34,649 nt of DNA from a virus, in the IMG/VR virus record IMGVR_UViG_3300044712_001518, positions 1-34,649 of that record, one strand, 5' to 3'. The position numbers were made by a program, and so were the translations under genes. The notes under the pieces are model-generated. The model was given only the letters and a program-made list of their open reading frames with translations, had not been told where the DNA came from and did not search any database. Shown here piece after piece: positions 7,901 to 19,530 of this stretch (position 1 is the stretch's first letter; every line of letters starts with the position of its first letter).

Positions 7901-8526
7901 TTCCTTCCCTCCAAAACATCTTCAACAACCTGCCCAAGTATGCTCATAACCCGCGGCTCCATCTGTTCTAAAGTCCTGGTCAAATAATGATGCGGTTTAA
8001 TCGTTACTTTCTTGCGAAGAATGAACAACGCCTGTGCTTTCGTTTTGCCTACTTTCTGCATTATTATCGGTCGCCCCATCCCGTCACGGCTCATCCATGT
8101 GTTGGGATACATCCTTGCCGTAGGATACTTCATCACTCCGGCGCGCGTTAATGCTGCGGCCAGAGGTATTGTCAACCATGCGGACTTTACCGGGCGTATA
8201 TCGCCGCCGTCTTCAAGAATATCGGCGTAAGGCGCTCTTTCTCCGCTACGCACTCCGCTGCCGATCACGTCCTCGATGTTATCTTTATGGTTTACTGTTA
8301 CGCTGCTAATAGTTTTTTGCAGATATCCGCTGCGTTTCTGTAAGTCTTTGTTATTTACGCGCTCGCGCATTATGCCTTCGGTTTCGATGGCTATAGCCTC
8401 CATACCCTTAATAAGGGCCGAAGCCTGCTTTTCAATGCTCAGCTGCCCAAGCCGCCGGTCAAGTTCCTCGCGGTCTTTCTCGTCGATTGTAAACGACAGC
8501 CGGTTATCTACTTTTTCAAATGGCAT
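7897..8526 (-). CDS. HK97 gp10-like neck / tail completion protein
   Basis: This 209-residue basic protein shows the HK97 gp10-type pattern: an N-terminal helical region, RSGYLQKTIS, then YADILEDGG. It is somewhat longer than usual, with a Met/Arg-rich insertion around residues 130-160. Proteins of this family lie at the head-tail joint and are needed for neck completion. The start overlaps the preceding stop as TAATG, showing translational coupling with the connector gene. Confidence 0.8.
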   Translation of the reverse strand: MPFEKVDNRLSFTIDEKDREELDRRLGQLSIEKQASALIKGMEAIAIETEGIMRERVNNKDLQKRSGYLQKTISSVTVNHKDNIEDVIGSGVRSGERAPYADILEDGGDIRPVKSAWLTIPLAAALTRAGVMKYPTARMYPNTWMSRDGMGRPIIMQKVGKTKAQALFILRKKVTIKPHHYLTRTLEQMEPRVMSILGQVVEDVLEGRK

Positions 8527-9107
8527 TAGAGTCCACCGCCAGCATAATTTATGTACTGGTCCAGTGTTTCATATGCAGATTTTCTCATGCTGGCCGGGGT
8601 ATAGCTGATACTTTCTCCAGGTTGAGCATTAACGGACGTGCGGCCCTGCAGGAGATCTGCTGCAACAAGCTTGCAAATCGCAAGTTTTAAACTTTCCGGA
8701 ACAGCAGTTCCACCAGTGCCGTATCCTCCCGAGTATGCAACTTTAACAGTCTGTTGACCTTCAAAAAAACAAGCTCCGTTAATCAGTACAAGCTTGCCTG
8801 TTTTGAGGTTGTCCAACGCAAGAATATCGGAAGATGAAAGCTGTGTCCCGGCCCCAAATACGTGTAGGCTGTCCACATATATACCAGTTATAGCCTTTAC
8901 CGGATAGCGCTTAACCTGTGCAATATCAGTACCGTCGCCGTCAAGATATTCAACCTCTGTGGCATTGTAATCAAATAGCCTGTCGCAATACTCTTCTGCT
9001 TTTGCCTGCGCCTGCGGAATTAGCGCATCAATGGCCGCATCCTGGCTTGTGTCCGCGCTCTTTATGCCAAGAAATGATTTTACGTCTGCTTTAACTATTA
9101 AAGCCAT
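8526..9107 (-). CDS. Head-tail connector (gp6-like adaptor)
   Basis: This 193-residue protein resembles the HK97 gp6/SPP1 gp15 adaptor family: an opening ALIVKADVKSFLGI, helices with AIDALIPQAQAKAEEYCDRLF, and a C-terminal helical segment with VPESLKLAICKLVAADLLQGR. ATG 9107 is chosen because AGGAG stands eight bases before it. The adaptor forms a ring under the portal to which head-closure and tail proteins dock. Confidence 0.82.
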   Translation of the reverse strand: MALIVKADVKSFLGIKSADTSQDAAIDALIPQAQAKAEEYCDRLFDYNATEVEYLDGDGTDIAQVKRYPVKAITGIYVDSLHVFGAGTQLSSSDILALDNLKTGKLVLINGACFFEGQQTVKVAYSGGYGTGGTAVPESLKLAICKLVAADLLQGRTSVNAQPGESISYTPASMRKSAYETLDQYINYAGGGL

Positions 9108-9267
9108 TGGACTGCTCCTTACCAAAAATATCATCGTTAATTTGCTCGAGCGTCTTTACCGTCTGAGGTCTATCATCAATAAGCGCCCCGCCCATTGTTA
9201 TGGTATCTTTAACAATCGCGCAGGGCAATTTAATTGCAACGTTAACAATAGCGTTAAATAGTTTCAT
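9091..9267 (-). CDS. Small head-tail region protein, 58 residues
   Basis: This short protein starts at ATG 9267 with GGAGGTG well placed upstream. It overlaps the glycosyltransferase end by 14 bases and the connector start by 17. It has an amphipathic N-terminal helix (FNAIVNVAIKLPCAIV), then VKDTITMGGAL and a C-terminal helix. Similar small proteins are common next to head-tail connectors in long-tailed phages, but I know of no proven role. The longer version from 9312 has no ribosome site and runs into the glycosyltransferase. Confidence 0.75.
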   Translation of the reverse strand: MKLFNAIVNVAIKLPCAIVKDTITMGGALIDDRPQTVKTLEQINDDIFGKEQSNGFNS

Positions 9268-10456
9268 TGCGTAACACCTCCCGAAGTATATCATCCAATC
9301 TTTCAGCGGCATGCCTCCAAGTCATAGTGCGATGGATACGCCCGCTTGCATACTTGCTTTTCTGCAATGCTTCCCGGTAGTGGCTGACAACATAAAACAT
9401 TTTTTCAGCCATATCTACCGCCCTGGGGACATATACGCGGGCAGTCAAATCATAATTACGCATAGCAGTTGCCTCAATGTCGTAATCAATGGGATACCCA
9501 CACTTTTCATCAAAGAACTCTGTAACACCTGTTACGGCGGTTGATATAGCAGGGCATCCGGTAGCTAACGCCTCGCATAGTGTCAGCCCCCAACCTTCTC
9601 CGGATGTGGGGAATAGAAAACAGTGGGCATCATTGTAGAGGCTAACCAACTGATCTATGGGCAGCTTCCTGGTATCAAAGAATATGTTCTTGTATTTGCC
9701 ATACACTTTGAGTTTGTCTGCTTTATCCGGAGTCGGCAGCTTTTGCAGTATACGCCACAGGGCCGCACGTCCGCCTTCTGTTGAAAATATCTGTTTGCGG
9801 TGCCTCCATGTGTTCCGTATGGTTTCCTTAAGCTTTGTTTTCGGCATTGTAGTTTTTATGTAGAGTTCACATTCAGGCATTTGTTCAATAAGGTTGATTA
9901 CTTGCAGTATCTGTTGATAACCTTTTCTGGGGTTAGGCGCTCCACTCCAGAAGAATCGAAAACGCTTAGGCTTACTCCACCATTTTAAATGCCGGTTTGT
10001 TATCCTGTCTAATATATTCCTTGGTTTTGGAGGAACATACGAAACATTTGGTCTTAATGGAAAACTGCGCTCATGGTACTTAAACACATCCGGATCAATT
10101 CCTTCATTACAAACGTAGATTGGCTTTCGAGTGTACCGGGAAAATAAATCCTTGCACCAGCGGCATGGGACAATAATTGCGTGTAAGCCCTCCATGTTAA
10201 ACGCATCAATATATGACTGCGGCACATCAAGCGCTTCCCACATTGTAAACAGCACGTTTATTTTCCCGCGGATTGGCTGAAAATGGTCCGCTGATACTAT
10301 GTGTAATGCGATAGGACCGCTATCATCTAAATCCATTATCTCGCTGCTGTATTTGCGCATAAAAGAATTATGGGTGTCATATCCCAGGGCATTACCTGCC
10401 CGGGAACCTTCTGGCCTAACCCAAAATACTTTTACCCTGTCGCGCTGTTTCTGCAT
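9254..10456 (-). CDS. GT4-family glycosyltransferase
   Basis: This 400-residue protein has the GT-B layout of family 4 glycosyltransferases, which transfer a sugar from a nucleotide-sugar to an acceptor. The C-terminal donor-binding half is clear: FFWSGAPNPRKGY around residues 168-180, FLFPTSGEGWG near 280-290, and the EX7E motif as E287 and E295 followed by ALATGCP and TGVTEFF. The N-terminal half includes CNEGIDPDVF. There is no signal peptide, so it acts in the cytoplasm. AAGGAG precedes ATG 10456. It lies in the late operon between capsid and connector genes, so a virion protein or the host surface is a likely target; this is inference. Confidence 0.88.
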   Translation of the reverse strand: MQKQRDRVKVFWVRPEGSRAGNALGYDTHNSFMRKYSSEIMDLDDSGPIALHIVSADHFQPIRGKINVLFTMWEALDVPQSYIDAFNMEGLHAIIVPCRWCKDLFSRYTRKPIYVCNEGIDPDVFKYHERSFPLRPNVSYVPPKPRNILDRITNRHLKWWSKPKRFRFFWSGAPNPRKGYQQILQVINLIEQMPECELYIKTTMPKTKLKETIRNTWRHRKQIFSTEGGRAALWRILQKLPTPDKADKLKVYGKYKNIFFDTRKLPIDQLVSLYNDAHCFLFPTSGEGWGLTLCEALATGCPAISTAVTGVTEFFDEKCGYPIDYDIEATAMRNYDLTARVYVPRAVDMAEKMFYVVSHYREALQKSKYASGRIHRTMTWRHAAERLDDILREVLRNETI

Positions 10457-10485
10457 CTGTTCGCTCCTTGCCGCTATTCTGCGGT

Positions 10486-10698
10486 TTATTTGCTTTCCAT
10501 ATCCTCAGGCTTAACGGCCTTATTGTATATGTCTTTGGCTGTCCTTTCGCTCACGCACTCGCGCCCACAATCGCAATACGTGCGTATGTCAGTGCGCGCC
10601 ATGCGAGATTTACGACAATTTGGGCCCGGGCAAAATACTCGCGCCATTGTCGGCTGCTCCTTGTCATTCTGCGTCTGCTGTCTTGTTCCACCTGCCAT
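10486..10698 (-). CDS. Small zinc-ribbon-like protein, 70 residues
   Basis: This protein has two cysteine clusters, CPGPNC near residues 23-28 and CDCGREC near 42-48, that could bind one zinc ion as a ribbon or treble clef. The rest is basic and polar. AGGAGG lies well placed before ATG 10698. It is between the radical SAM and glycosyltransferase genes with short gaps (27 and 29 bases). It could be an accessory or DNA/RNA-binding protein, or even a substrate of its neighbours. I do not recognise the family. Confidence 0.65.
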   Translation of the reverse strand: MAGGTRQQTQNDKEQPTMARVFCPGPNCRKSRMARTDIRTYCDCGRECVSERTAKDIYNKAVKPEDMESK

Positions 10699-10725
10699 AA
10701 TACGTTACCTCCTATCTATTCGTTA

Positions 10726-11538
10726 CTACCGCTTGTTAACGGTTACCTTATCACGATCACAACCCGCGCATCCGTTGTAATTATCGCACGGCGTCATCTG
10801 TCTATTGAGAACAAACCCCGGATCAAGGATATTGCCCAGGGCTGGAGCGCCTTTGTGCATATCGTTTACGCATCGGAATGCTGTGCCGTCCGGGTAAACT
10901 TGTAAATGACTCATCCCTGCAGAGCAGGTAACTGGCACAACATCGTTGCTCAATGCGTTAGACCGGTCGCTACCGATATACCGAGCAATTAACTGCCGTT
11001 CCGCTTCGGTATATTTGAAATCTCCATCCTCATCGTTGCGGCGGCCGTAGTAATCGACATGGAACCGAAACCCTTCACGCGTAAACGCATCTTTATAATC
11101 CTGGAGCATATACAACTGTTCCGGCCATGTAACAAAATTAACTGTTACAGGATACTTGCGTGCGCGCAGGAGCTTTGCCTTGCCAAGAAACCGGTCGTAA
11201 TCCATTTGCGATGGATGGAAACTGATTGTCATTGAGAGTATGCGCTCGCGCGGTACGCGCTGCACAAACTCGGACAGATCACACTTTACGTTGGTGGTAA
11301 TGGCAACACGCGTACTTTCCGGAAGCATCGTTAACAAATCCACGAATCCCGGAACGAGGAATGGTTCTCCCCCTGTGATATCAAGTACCTGGGGAGAGAG
11401 GCGAGACCATGCCGCGGACCACTCTTCCGGATTAATATTTGTTTTGGGGTGAAACTTTTCGAGAGAGTGCCAAGCCCAACAATATGGACATTTCATATTG
11501 CACACATCGGTAATAAACCAAACTGCTGATCTTAACAT
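10726..11538 (-). CDS. Radical SAM enzyme with SPASM/twitch-like C-terminus
   Basis: This 270-residue protein carries the radical SAM signature C13-x3-C17-x2-C20 (CNMKCPYC), which holds a 4Fe-4S cluster that cleaves S-adenosylmethionine, followed by the GGEP motif at 56-59. The C-terminus has five more cysteines (C205, C223, C251, C257, C260) in a pattern like twitch or SPASM domains, which bind auxiliary clusters and often act on peptides. I chose ATG 11538 because GAGGAATCA lies before it; ATG 11559 has no such site. It is the first gene of the three-gene cassette behind the capsid gene. The substrate cannot be read from sequence; a peptide or protein modification is the likeliest guess. 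Confidence 0.85.
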   Translation of the reverse strand: MLRSAVWFITDVCNMKCPYCWAWHSLEKFHPKTNINPEEWSAAWSRLSPQVLDITGGEPFLVPGFVDLLTMLPESTRVAITTNVKCDLSEFVQRVPRERILSMTISFHPSQMDYDRFLGKAKLLRARKYPVTVNFVTWPEQLYMLQDYKDAFTREGFRFHVDYYGRRNDEDGDFKYTEAERQLIARYIGSDRSNALSNDVVPVTCSAGMSHLQVYPDGTAFRCVNDMHKGAPALGNILDPGFVLNRQMTPCDNYNGCAGCDRDKVTVNKR

Positions 11539-11570
11539 TGATTCCTCACTGTTTAACATTTTCTACTAAA

Positions 11571-11613
11571 CCCCAGAGATGGGGCCCACCTGGACAGGGA
11601 CAGGCAGGCCCCA
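11571..11613 (-). terminator. Paired alternative hairpins after the capsid gene
   Basis: The 91-base gap between the capsid stop and the radical SAM start holds two overlapping inverted repeats. One pairs 11580-11586 with 11607-11613 (TGGGGCC with GGCCCCA). The other pairs 11571-11575 with 11580-11584 (CCCCA with TGGGG around a four-base loop), followed on the minus strand by GTTTAG. Both use 11580-11584, so they exclude each other. The U-run is short, so this may be a partial terminator or attenuator lowering expression of the cassette relative to capsid. Confidence 0.5.
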
Positions 11614-11629
11614 AGCTCGATATTTTCTA

Positions 11630-12925
11630 TTATGCAGCTGTAACTATGCGCCCAAATGCTGCTTCCATCGCCCTGGCTAAGGCCCAGCGTGAGAATACAG
11701 CAAGACGGGTTTCGTTATAATCCATACGTGTGTATGGGTCAACTTTGAGCGACAACGTACCCATACGACGGCCGATATAGTAATAATCGAAGTTCCCGAA
11801 CGCAATAAATCCCTTATTTGCTCCAGTTGCGGACTTTGCAACGCTTTTAGCGCTCTGGAAGTATGGATATTCCCATATCATTCCGGGTTTGGATTCGCCG
11901 GGCCGCGCATAAACATATGCTCCATTGTTGTCTTTAAGGACTTTAACGAGATGCATTATTGTGCGGTGGAGTATCCAACGAGCATTGGCGGCATAACCTT
12001 CAGGTATAAGAGAGGCCAGCTCGTCCAGATCGTCAGCAGTTACCGATGAGAAGTTAACCAGTCCGGATGCAAGAACAACCGAGTATCCAGCAGCAGCAGT
12101 AAGAATACCGCTTACCGGGTCGCCAGTGCCGTTGAGTATCTGGTTATCAATCTCCTGGTTAATTGCATAGCTCATAGCGTTGGCAATTTCGCTGGTTAAG
12201 TCAACATTAGCATCTGCCAGCAGGTCATTATCAACTGTGCCGTAGCAATCCAGATGCTTTGCCGTAAGAGTCAACTGCCCATAAGTGTTTTTGCTTCCGG
12301 TCCTCTGCTCATTTGCAGTACGCCATGAGGACGAGAAAAGCGCGGTTTCACGCGGCACTTTCTTCACGTCGCTGGACATATCAACCACTTTGCAGAATTG
12401 CAGACCGAAAAACATATCACGATTAAGCCTGATGATGTCCGGGGAAAACTCGTCCGGGATTAAGAAACCACCGTCCGCGTCAACTCCGCTCGACATATCC
12501 GCTTTGCGATAAAACTCCATCAAATCGGCTTTCGCCTGCATGTCTGGGTTTACTGGACGCGAAGATTTCACCAAATCAATGAAAAATTTGGATAGCTCTT
12601 CTACTTTTTCGGGCTTCGAAAGAGTTTTAAGACCTTTTGCCTTGCCTTCGCTCCCAAGGAACGCTTCCCCAAGGTTGCAAAGTTTATAACCTTTATACTC
12701 GCCTGAGCGTACAATTCCAGGCGCGCCAAATAGTTTTTCAGTAGGCAATGCCTCAATCTTTTTAAGCCGTTCTTCTATGGCTTCCACTTTCGCTGCCTTC
12801 TCTTCAACCGCCGTTACCTTTTCGGCAACGGTTTTAATCTGTGCGCCAAGAGTATCAGTTACCGACTTTATGCCGGACTGTACGCTTTCTTTGACCTTCT
12901 CCAACATCTTTTGGAGTTCGTCCAT
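11630..12925 (-). CDS. Major capsid protein, HK97 fold
   Basis: This 431-residue protein has the HK97 type layout: an N-terminal coiled-coil delta region (residues 1-60, rich in Lys/Glu/Val) that is usually removed by the protease, then a capsid domain with SSGVDADGGFLIPDEFS, LTLTAKHLDCYGTVDNDLLADA and a C-terminal FAFGNFDYYYIGRRMG-like strand with DPYTRMDYNETRLAVFSRW. GGAGG precedes ATG 12925. It lies five bases after the protease gene. It forms the icosahedral shell. The N-terminal MDELQK is shared with the protease. Confidence 0.95.
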   Translation of the reverse strand: MDELQKMLEKVKESVQSGIKSVTDTLGAQIKTVAEKVTAVEEKAAKVEAIEERLKKIEALPTEKLFGAPGIVRSGEYKGYKLCNLGEAFLGSEGKAKGLKTLSKPEKVEELSKFFIDLVKSSRPVNPDMQAKADLMEFYRKADMSSGVDADGGFLIPDEFSPDIIRLNRDMFFGLQFCKVVDMSSDVKKVPRETALFSSSWRTANEQRTGSKNTYGQLTLTAKHLDCYGTVDNDLLADANVDLTSEIANAMSYAINQEIDNQILNGTGDPVSGILTAAAGYSVVLASGLVNFSSVTADDLDELASLIPEGYAANARWILHRTIMHLVKVLKDNNGAYVYARPGESKPGMIWEYPYFQSAKSVAKSATGANKGFIAFGNFDYYYIGRRMGTLSLKVDPYTRMDYNETRLAVFSRWALARAMEAAFGRIVTAA

Positions 12926-18097: not shown

Positions 18098-18127
18098 AGT
18101 ATAATATTTTTGTATCTAATACGTCAA
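18098..18127 (-). promoter_or_regulatory. Candidate late promoter
   Basis: On the minus strand TTGACG (18127-18122) and TATACT (18103-18098) are 18 bases apart, each one mismatch from the sigma70 consensus. The -35 part overlaps the stop codon of the ParB-like gene. Transcription would begin near 18091 and meet the long stem-loop at once. It is the only good promoter seen upstream of the terminase genes. Confidence 0.5.
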
Positions 18128-19530
18128 CCTTTTTTTTGTCTTCCTTCCAATGCTAAATTTATTGCTTTTAAGTCTTCAATATCAATACGGCTCCATGTAT
18201 CAGTAATATAATCTTTACTGACTTCAATCATGATTTCATACAGTACTTCCTGTTCTAATTGTAGGAAGTATTTTAAATTAATAGCGCCCTCTGGTTTGAA
18301 TTTTTCGGATACGATTTCAGATGCAGTTGTGTCTTCGCAAAGCACATTTAAAATTATGCACAAAGCAATATGACTATCTATGTTTTTACACACTTCACTT
18401 CGTAAACGTACATCTTCTTTTTGTTCTTTTAGCGCATCTTCTCGGGCTTTTGATTCTTCTTCCTTGATTCTTTCCTGTTCCGGGTCAGGCGGCGGGGTTG
18501 TTAATTTGCTGCAGCAGGAGAGTTTTAAACACCGTTCAGTTATAACTTTAGAAGAATCTTCATTCCAATACTGTAAAGGCTCTATTGCAAAAACATGGTT
18601 TTTACACTTAAGACATTTATTTTTATAATTATCACCCAATCGCAGTTTGATTTCATTACATATTTCTGCCGTTTCATGCCTGGAATAATTATTTATCCGG
18701 CTTTTTAGCTCGGATTCTAACTCAACTTTATTCCCTTTCTTTTTAAGCTCTTTAATTTTACGCGCAAATTCTTCTTCGCATTTGCCATCGAAGCATTTAG
18801 TATTAAGACATCTGCCAGATATGCTTGTGTCAGAGTCAAATAGGTCCTTTTGCGTGGTCCCATTATGCGGGCACGTTTCACAATCTGCTGTATTAAATGG
18901 CGCACCAGATATTTCTTTGCCTTGGTATTTAAGCATATTTTCCGCGGCCCGGATGCTAAGTTTTTCGCGCACAATAGTATCCAGCATTCGCAGTTGAGCC
19001 TCCGGATCCTGAACACGTACCATCACCAGCCCGTGTCCTGGGCTGATTGTCTCTTCCGCGATAGCCAGCTTTACTTTATCCGGCAAATCCAACAACTTCA
19101 ATCTTCCGGAAATGTATGATTCTGTCTTACCAGTTTTACTTGCGATTTCAGCAATACCCATACCTTTTGTTTCGTACTGCATTAATAACCTTTTGAAAGC
19201 CTCTGCCTCGTTAATGGCATTCACATCCTGCCGCTGGAGATTTTCAATTATTGCTATTTCCAGCGCTTCCTGGTCATCTACTTTACGAACAATGCATGGT
19301 ACATTATCCAGGCCTAGAGAACATGCTGCAACATACCTGCGTTCACCACAGACTATCTCAAACTTCTTTGGATTTCCTTTAAACGGACGAACAATTATTG
19401 GTTGCAATATACCATGCTCTCTTATAGATTCTTCCAGCTCGTAAATACTTTTATTTTTTACTACCCTTCTTGGGTTAATATCTGATTTAATAATATAGCC
19501 AACATTTATGTTTAGTATTTCTGTAGTCAT
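18124..19530 (-). CDS. ParB/Spo0J-like DNA-binding protein with Cys-rich insert
   Basis: This 468-residue protein starts with a ParB N-domain: ELEESIREHGILQPIIVRP, the CTP-binding motif GERRYVAA (residues 62-69) and ENLQRQDVNAINEAEAF. A helix-turn-helix follows at about 123-146. Cysteines C217, C220, C241, C246 and C251 suggest a zinc site, with more cysteines near 310-345. A charged coiled coil and a C-terminal helical region end the protein. GGGAG precedes ATG 19530. There is no ParA partner in the genome, so plasmid-type partition is doubtful. A regulator of late genes or a DNA-organising role is possible; the function is open. Confidence 0.82.
   Translation of the reverse strand: MTTEILNINVGYIIKSDINPRRVVKNKSIYELEESIREHGILQPIIVRPFKGNPKKFEIVCGERRYVAACSLGLDNVPCIVRKVDDQEALEIAIIENLQRQDVNAINEAEAFKRLLMQYETKGMGIAEIASKTGKTESYISGRLKLLDLPDKVKLAIAEETISPGHGLVMVRVQDPEAQLRMLDTIVREKLSIRAAENMLKYQGKEISGAPFNTADCETCPHNGTTQKDLFDSDTSISGRCLNTKCFDGKCEEEFARKIKELKKKGNKVELESELKSRINNYSRHETAEICNEIKLRLGDNYKNKCLKCKNHVFAIEPLQYWNEDSSKVITERCLKLSCCSKLTTPPPDPEQERIKEEESKAREDALKEQKEDVRLRSEVCKNIDSHIALCIILNVLCEDTTASEIVSEKFKPEGAINLKYFLQLEQEVLYEIMIEVSKDYITDTWSRIDIEDLKAINLALEGRQKKG

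What the first reader, a model, noticed from the sequence alone, without database searches (positions are those of the whole stretch)
9254..11538. Radical SAM, zinc-ribbon and glycosyltransferase cassette inside the head operon
Three genes of enzymatic or metal-binding type are inserted between major capsid and head-tail connector genes. The radical SAM enzyme has extra C-terminal cysteines typical of enzymes that modify peptides or proteins. Together with a GT4 glycosyltransferase and a 70-residue Cys-rich protein, this looks like a late-expressed modification system for a virion protein, or for the small protein itself. I know of no described phage system with this trio.
Basis: partly seen in the sequence, partly recalled or inferred. 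Interest (0 to 1): 0.75.

Follow-up and report, generated by a model that had tools for sequence, protein, structure and literature searches.

The report
Capsid-side sugar-decoration cassette in phages
Just after its capsid gene this phage carries a small set of genes (a sugar-transferring enzyme, a tiny zinc-binding protein and a radical enzyme) that many distantly related, uncultured phages keep in the same place, most likely to build and attach an unusual sugar to the virus particle.

Summary
Three genes sit on the minus strand between the major capsid protein (MCP) and the head-tail connector: a radical SAM enzyme with a twitch-type C-terminus, a small Cys-rich protein and a GT4 glycosyltransferase. 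The trio is not chance. In 14 distinct contigs, whose capsid proteins are typically about 43% identical, rSAM, small zinc-ribbon (ZnR) and GT4 occur together in that order; capsid and connector flank the set wherever the contig reaches them. The finding's own refutation test (genes scattered, never together) therefore fails.

Comparison changes the reading. The conserved core is ZnR+GT4 (23 of 27 close GT4 loci). rSAM is present in 16 of 27 and comes from two separate clades. Other members of the slot are sugar enzymes: GT2, GT9, PIG-L deacetylase, epimerases, aminotransferase, LicD, cytidylyltransferase, methyltransferases, sulfotransferase and a fold most like sialyltransferase Cst-I.

Best explanation: a capsid-side glycan cassette in which rSAM oxidises or epimerises a sugar and GT4, with ZnR, transfers it to a virion protein. 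The ZnR is probably not the rSAM's substrate. Virion decoration (precedents: Corndog, Che8) is more likely than host-surface modification, but neither is shown. New variant of a known kind.

The parts
10726..11559 (-). radical SAM enzyme with twitch-type C-terminal Cys motif; start probably at 11538
   Evidence: Pfam PF04055 1.9e-8; Cys pattern CX3CX2C and C-x12-G-x4-C...C-x5-C-x2-C invariant in 13 sequences; model pLDDT 78.5, VIA-align Z 15-17 to SkfB, SuiB, PqqE, MoaA, BlsE
10486..10698 (-). small four-Cys zinc-ribbon-like protein (ZnR); start possibly at 10647
   Evidence: Aligns with small proteins directly upstream of GT4 in relatives; 33 of 37 ZnR-profile hits among 4506 small ORFs lie directly upstream of GT4, about 20 of the 37 being profile members
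9254..10456 (-). GT4 (GT-B) glycosyltransferase
   Evidence: Pfam PF00534 2.9e-11; GEGWxLxLxEA(ML)ATG (E-x7-E) motif in 25 of 27 loci and GAPNxRKGY motif in the window and most loci; phrog_2170 glycosyltransferase 1e-30
11630..12925 (-). major capsid protein (HK97 fold), upstream flank of the cassette and candidate acceptor
   Evidence: Pfam PF05065 1.8e-47
8526..9134 (-). head-tail connector, downstream flank
   Evidence: Pfam PF05135 1e-7; phrog_442 2.4e-18
9091..9312 (-). small ORF overlapping GT4 and connector (58 aa from inner Met at 9267); probably not part of the cassette
   Evidence: phrog_33676, unknown function, 4e-4; no counterpart found between GT4 and connector in the other loci
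11580..11613 (-). 13-bp hairpin between MCP and rSAM, no U run; possible attenuator or processing site
   Evidence: -30.3 kcal/mol, z -2.6, 4 of 200 shuffles as stable

Best explanation
A capsid-side glycan cassette. The three genes lie in the late head operon and are therefore presumably made with the capsid (inferred from gene order). The GT4 enzyme, working with the small zinc-ribbon protein as a dedicated partner (adaptor or acceptor-recognition subunit), transfers a sugar to a virion protein, most simply the neighbouring capsid protein. The twitch radical SAM enzyme changes the sugar, by oxidation or epimerisation in the manner of BtrN-like enzymes, before or after transfer. In related phages the same slot is filled by other sugar-building or sugar-capping enzymes, so the glycan differs between phages while the transferase pair stays. 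Shown here: gene identities, synteny, which gene tracks which, and the sugar-enzyme content of the slot. Inferred: expression timing, the chemistry of rSAM, the role of ZnR, and the virion acceptor.
For: rSAM relatives: 15 viral contigs; those with head genes have MCP upstream and GT4 plus connector downstream. Among 27 distinct GT4 loci above 400 bits: ZnR in 23, rSAM in 16, both in 14. Identity within the 14: GT4 median 50%, minimum 40%; MCP median 43%, minimum 35%, so the synteny is not recent common descent. Two rSAM clades occupy the same slot (second clade 100/100 support). Pfam on 51 further slot proteins: GT2, PIG-L, DUF6625, epimerase, Polysacc_synt_2, DegT aminotransferase, LicD, CTP_transf, GT9, sulfotransferase and methyltransferases; none of the 25 families listed is a flippase, polymerase or membrane translocase. 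The ~185 aa protein directly before rSAM in five loci (and present in one locus without rSAM) is closest to Cst-I sialyltransferase (Z 10.5 over 163 of 182 residues; next row 9.5). A second group of phages pairs the rSAM with Mannosyl_trans3+FkbM methyltransferase, and L002 with GT25 and methyltransferase. Precedent: Corndog O-methyltransferase, two GTs and a GlcNAc-transferase between portal and protease (PMC4351075); capsid glycosylation by Che8 gp110 and Corndog gp38 (reported in PMC12363180). No membrane segment in GT4 or rSAM.
Against: No acceptor, donor or product is known and nothing was measured. The GT4 is not related to Che8 gp108 by profile comparison, and Che8 GTs are GT2 and GT25. 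GT4 and slot enzymes could equally serve host-surface glycans, as was argued for pelagimyophage glycosyltransferases (PMC7029224). Twitch and SPASM enzymes include peptide-modifying ones, and the best structural matches are RiPP maturases. All cassette relatives are uncultured contigs, some of them fragments.
Confidence: 0.6

Rival explanations
1. Host-surface modification: the cassette alters a host cell-surface glycan during infection (receptor masking, superinfection exclusion) and merely sits in the late operon.
For: Slot proteins are LPS/capsule-type sugar enzymes. Pelagimyophage glycosyltransferases in the host-recognition region, where radical SAM cassettes also vary, were read this way (PMC7029224). 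The window phage is temperate (integrase).
Against: None of the Pfam families listed for the slot (25 of 29 shown) is a flippase, polymerase or membrane-anchored translocase. GT4 and rSAM have no membrane segment. The position between MCP and connector is held across deep divergence, and late head-operon timing suits virion proteins better.
Confidence: 0.2
2. Peptide or protein modification by rSAM: the enzyme cross-links or epimerises the small protein or a virion protein (RiPP-like), with GT4 glycosylating the same protein.
For: Structural matches to SkfB, SuiB, CteB and EpeE; small Cys-rich neighbour.
Against: ZnR is present without rSAM in 9 of its 23 loci and absent in 2 of the 16 rSAM loci, so it is not an rSAM-specific substrate. 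Its cysteines form an ordinary CxxC...CxxC ribbon. No precursor-like peptide is conserved with rSAM, and rSAM neighbours in other phages are sugar enzymes.
Confidence: 0.13
3. Unlinked morons: each gene has its own role and the slot between MCP and connector is only a tolerated insertion point.
For: Gene content of the slot varies; loci with MCP followed directly by connector exist (L112, L114, L119, L123).
Against: Fixed order and repeated co-occurrence in 14 diverged contigs, ZnR-GT4 start/stop overlaps in several, and nearly one functional theme.
Confidence: 0.07

Closest known systems
Mycobacteriophage virion-glycosylation genes (Corndog gp35-38; Che8 gp108-110)
   Same: Phage-encoded GTs and methyltransferases; in Corndog they lie inside the head operon, and capsid glycosylation is reported.
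   Different: Corndog: between portal and protease. Che8 GTs are GT2 and GT25 and lie in a block near the right end with no head gene in the region read. GT4 profile not related to Che8 gp108. No rSAM is mentioned in the Corndog paper or annotated at the Che8 block.
SPASM/twitch radical SAM enzymes (BtrN, SpeY, BlsE, MoaA; SuiB, SkfB)
   Same: CX3CX2C core, C-x12-G-x4-C plus three further Cys, same fold.
   Different: Below every NCBIfam family cut-off; best is STM4011 at 57.7 bits against 200; substrate unknown.
Pelagimyophage host-recognition clusters (PMC7029224)
   Same: Glycosyltransferases and radical SAM cassettes in a hypervariable phage region.
   Different: T4-like myophages with the cluster around tail fibres; no described ZnR-GT4 core at the capsid gene.
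GT4 enzymes of phages and algal viruses (Streptomyces phage Belfort gp20; chlorovirus B736L)
   Same: GT4 sequence similarity.
   Different: About 23% identity to Belfort, whose GTs lie beside ribonucleotide reductase and not the capsid gene.

Membership tests
Radical SAM superfamily | CX3CX2C cluster motif and Radical_SAM domain | tested here: met
   C20, C24, C27; PF04055 above cut-off
SPASM/twitch radical SAM | C-x9-15-G-x4-C motif and further C-terminal Cys for an auxiliary cluster | tested here: met
   C212-x12-G225-x4-C230, C258, C264, C267, invariant; cluster itself not observed
SPASM/twitch radical SAM | fold match over core and C-terminal part | tested here: met
   Z 15-17 over 236-252 residues to SkfB, SuiB, PqqE, MoaA, BlsE
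SPASM/twitch radical SAM | auxiliary [4Fe-4S] cluster | not testable with these tools
   needs spectroscopy
STM4011, MoaA, viperin or QueE families | NCBIfam curated cut-off | tested here: not met
   57.7/200, 42/284, 38.5/180, 35.4/260 bits
GT4 glycosyltransferase | Glycos_transf_1 domain with E-x7-E motif | tested here: met
   PF00534 above cut-off; GEGWGLTLCEALATG
Phage virion-glycosylation cassette | sugar enzymes encoded in the head operon | tested here: met
Phage virion-glycosylation cassette | sugar present on virion protein | not testable with these tools
   needs mass spectrometry
Phage virion-glycosylation cassette | homology of GT to Che8 GT gp108 | tested here: not met
   hhalign probability 0.2%; gp109 and gp110 compared only by Pfam family
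RiPP system | small precursor encoded specifically with the rSAM | tested here: not met
   the only small neighbour (ZnR) follows GT4, not rSAM
LysW-type carrier protein | C-terminal EDWGE attachment motif (defining motif from own knowledge) | tested here: not met
   tail is G-(I/V)-(V/I)-T-K in most members; LysW is only a weak ribbon match

The most novel reading that the evidence does not exclude
A new, widespread capsid-glycosylation system of phages in which a dedicated zinc-ribbon protein, with a conserved G-(I/V)-(V/I)-T-K tail, guides or carries for a GT4 transferase, and a radical SAM enzyme supplies a sugar chemistry (keto- or epimerised sugar) not known on any virus particle, with the sugar-tailoring genes swapped between phages.
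Probability: 0.25. Interest if true: 0.8.

Novelty: new variant of a known kind. Interest (0 to 1): 0.6.

Why it matters
Phage virion glycosylation has been shown in only a few mycobacteriophages. A conserved, swappable sugar cassette at the capsid gene of many uncultured phages would suggest that decoration of phage particles is common and chemically diverse, would give a sequence handle (ZnR+GT4 after the capsid gene) to find it, and would put radical SAM chemistry on a virus particle for the first time to my knowledge. It makes the question of why phages coat their capsids directly testable.

Tried and rejected
Single-sequence GT4 scan of viral contigs found nothing; an alignment query was needed. 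ZnR as a LysW-like carrier: only a generic ribbon match, no EDWGE tail. Conserved ZnR tail as a by-product of the GT4 start site: rejected, since the motif also occurs well before the stop codon in L060, L061 and L073. Viperin, QueE, MoaA and STM4011 membership: below cut-offs. Homology to Che8 gp108: none. Corndog records AY129335 and NC_004685 are not held. Foldseek alone gave no significant match for the ~185 aa protein; VIA-align gave Cst-I, with the next row only 1.0 Z lower, so GT42-like is a lead. Insertion signal by GC: the cassette does not stand out. Freeman 2023 itself is not held; it is cited through PMC12363180.

Full report
The window is a 34,649-base IMG/VR virus record of a temperate siphovirus-type phage: integrase, RecT, ParB and Rep_O at one end and an HK97-type head and tail operon on the minus strand. 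Between the capsid gene (11630-12925) and the first connector gene (8526-9134) lie rSAM (10726-11559), a small Cys-rich protein (10486-10698) and a GT4 enzyme (9254-10456), about 27-70 bases apart. Relatives suggest the rSAM starts at 11538 and the small protein possibly at 10647.

Is it chance? A scan with the rSAM protein found 15 convincing viral relatives. Every one whose contig carries the same head genes shows MCP upstream and GT4 downstream, with the connector behind it where the contig reaches that far. A scan with the GT4 alignment gave 49 contigs. After removing duplicate contigs and near copies, 27 loci have a GT4 above 400 bits. Of these 23 have the small four-Cys protein directly upstream, 16 have an rSAM, 14 have both, 9 have the small protein without rSAM and 2 the reverse. 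One of the 14 lies in a Verrucomicrobiota MAG contig, L018. Capsid proteins among the 14 have median identity 43% and GT4 50%, so the arrangement has been kept over long divergence. Of 37 profile hits for the small protein among 4,506 small ORFs, 33 lie directly upstream of a GT4; about 20 of the 37 are profile members, but several (L062, L071, L073, further copies in L063 and L069) are not.

What the comparison shows. First, the small protein belongs with GT4, not with rSAM (Fisher p = 1 for association with rSAM), and in several loci its stop overlaps the GT4 start. It is a generic CxxC...CxxC ribbon with a conserved G-(I/V)-(V/I)-T-K tail that is not explained by the start site of the next gene. 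Second, the rSAMs form two clades, one of them with 100/100 support on a long branch, and both occupy the same slot. Third, other proteins of the slot are sugar enzymes: GT2, GT9, PIG-L deacetylase, DUF6625, epimerases, Polysacc_synt_2, DegT aminotransferase, LicD, cytidylyltransferase, GNAT, methyltransferases, a sulfotransferase and transketolase halves. A ~185 aa family directly before rSAM in five loci has Cst-I sialyltransferase as its best structural match (Z 10.5, 163 residues, 3.4 A; next row 9.5), which is a lead only. Fourth, relatives of the rSAM outside this operon type again sit beside sugar enzymes: Mannosyl_trans3 fused to an FkbM methyltransferase, or GT25 with a methyltransferase.

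The rSAM itself. It has the CX3CX2C core and C-x12-G-x4-C...C-x5-C-x2-C, all invariant in 13 sequences. This meets the twitch/SPASM motif; twitch enzymes bind one auxiliary cluster, and BtrN, a twitch enzyme, oxidises an aminocyclitol (PMC9012708). The AlphaFold model (mean pLDDT 78.5) matches SkfB, SuiB, PqqE, MoaA and BlsE at Z 15-17 and also, lower, BtrN and SpeY. Structure does not separate peptide from sugar substrates; gene neighbourhood does favour sugar. It falls below every NCBIfam cut-off.

Mechanism proposed. GT4 with ZnR transfers a sugar, tailored by rSAM, to a virion protein, most simply the MCP. Precedents are Corndog, with methyltransferase and GT genes between portal and protease and poorly recovered capsid peptides (PMC4351075), and the reported capsid glycosylation in Corndog and Che8 (PMC12363180). 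The profile of our GT4 is not related to Che8 gp108, so this is the same kind of system built from other parts. Host-surface modification remains possible (PMC7029224 argues this for pelagimyophage GTs); against it are the absence of any flippase, polymerase or membrane translocase among the Pfam families listed for the slot and the fixed place beside the capsid gene.

Novelty. No annotated phage genome in the held collection has a close relative of the rSAM (five Campylobacter phages at 26% over half the protein), and GT4 relatives among annotated phages are about 23% identical. Paper searches for phage radical SAM with glycosyltransferase and capsid terms found no description of the trio. 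I file it as a new variant of a known kind, phage virion-glycosylation cassettes, with the virion sugar untested.

Noticed in passing
window 11580-11613, minus strand: Strong 13-bp hairpin without U run between MCP and rSAM (-30 kcal/mol, z -2.6); may attenuate or process the transcript after the capsid gene.
   Followed up: partly
L009 5442-6746 and L014 1863-3164: Capsid proteins of two relatives begin with their own CxxC...CxxC ribbon-like motif in the N-terminal (delta) region; the window capsid protein does not.
   Followed up: no
L004, L005, L007, L008, L010, L011, L013: A second phage group has a ~572 aa protein like the Mannosyl_trans3+FkbM methyltransferase of L019 before the rSAM, preceded in several of them by a long Ser-Gly repeat protein and a Cys-rich protein; Ser-Gly repeats could be sugar acceptors.
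   Followed up: partly
L080 4748-5768: A phage slot carries transketolase split into N-terminal and pyrimidine-binding halves as two adjacent genes, next to an epimerase and a PIG-L enzyme.
   Followed up: no
L108: Two separate MCP segments with a 207 aa ORF between them, possibly an intron or inserted gene in the capsid gene.
   Followed up: no
window 9091-9312, minus strand: Small ORF overlapping GT4 end and connector start, weak match to phrog_33676 (unknown function).
   Followed up: no
window 18124-19530: Phage-encoded ParB-like protein between terminase and replication genes.
   Followed up: no
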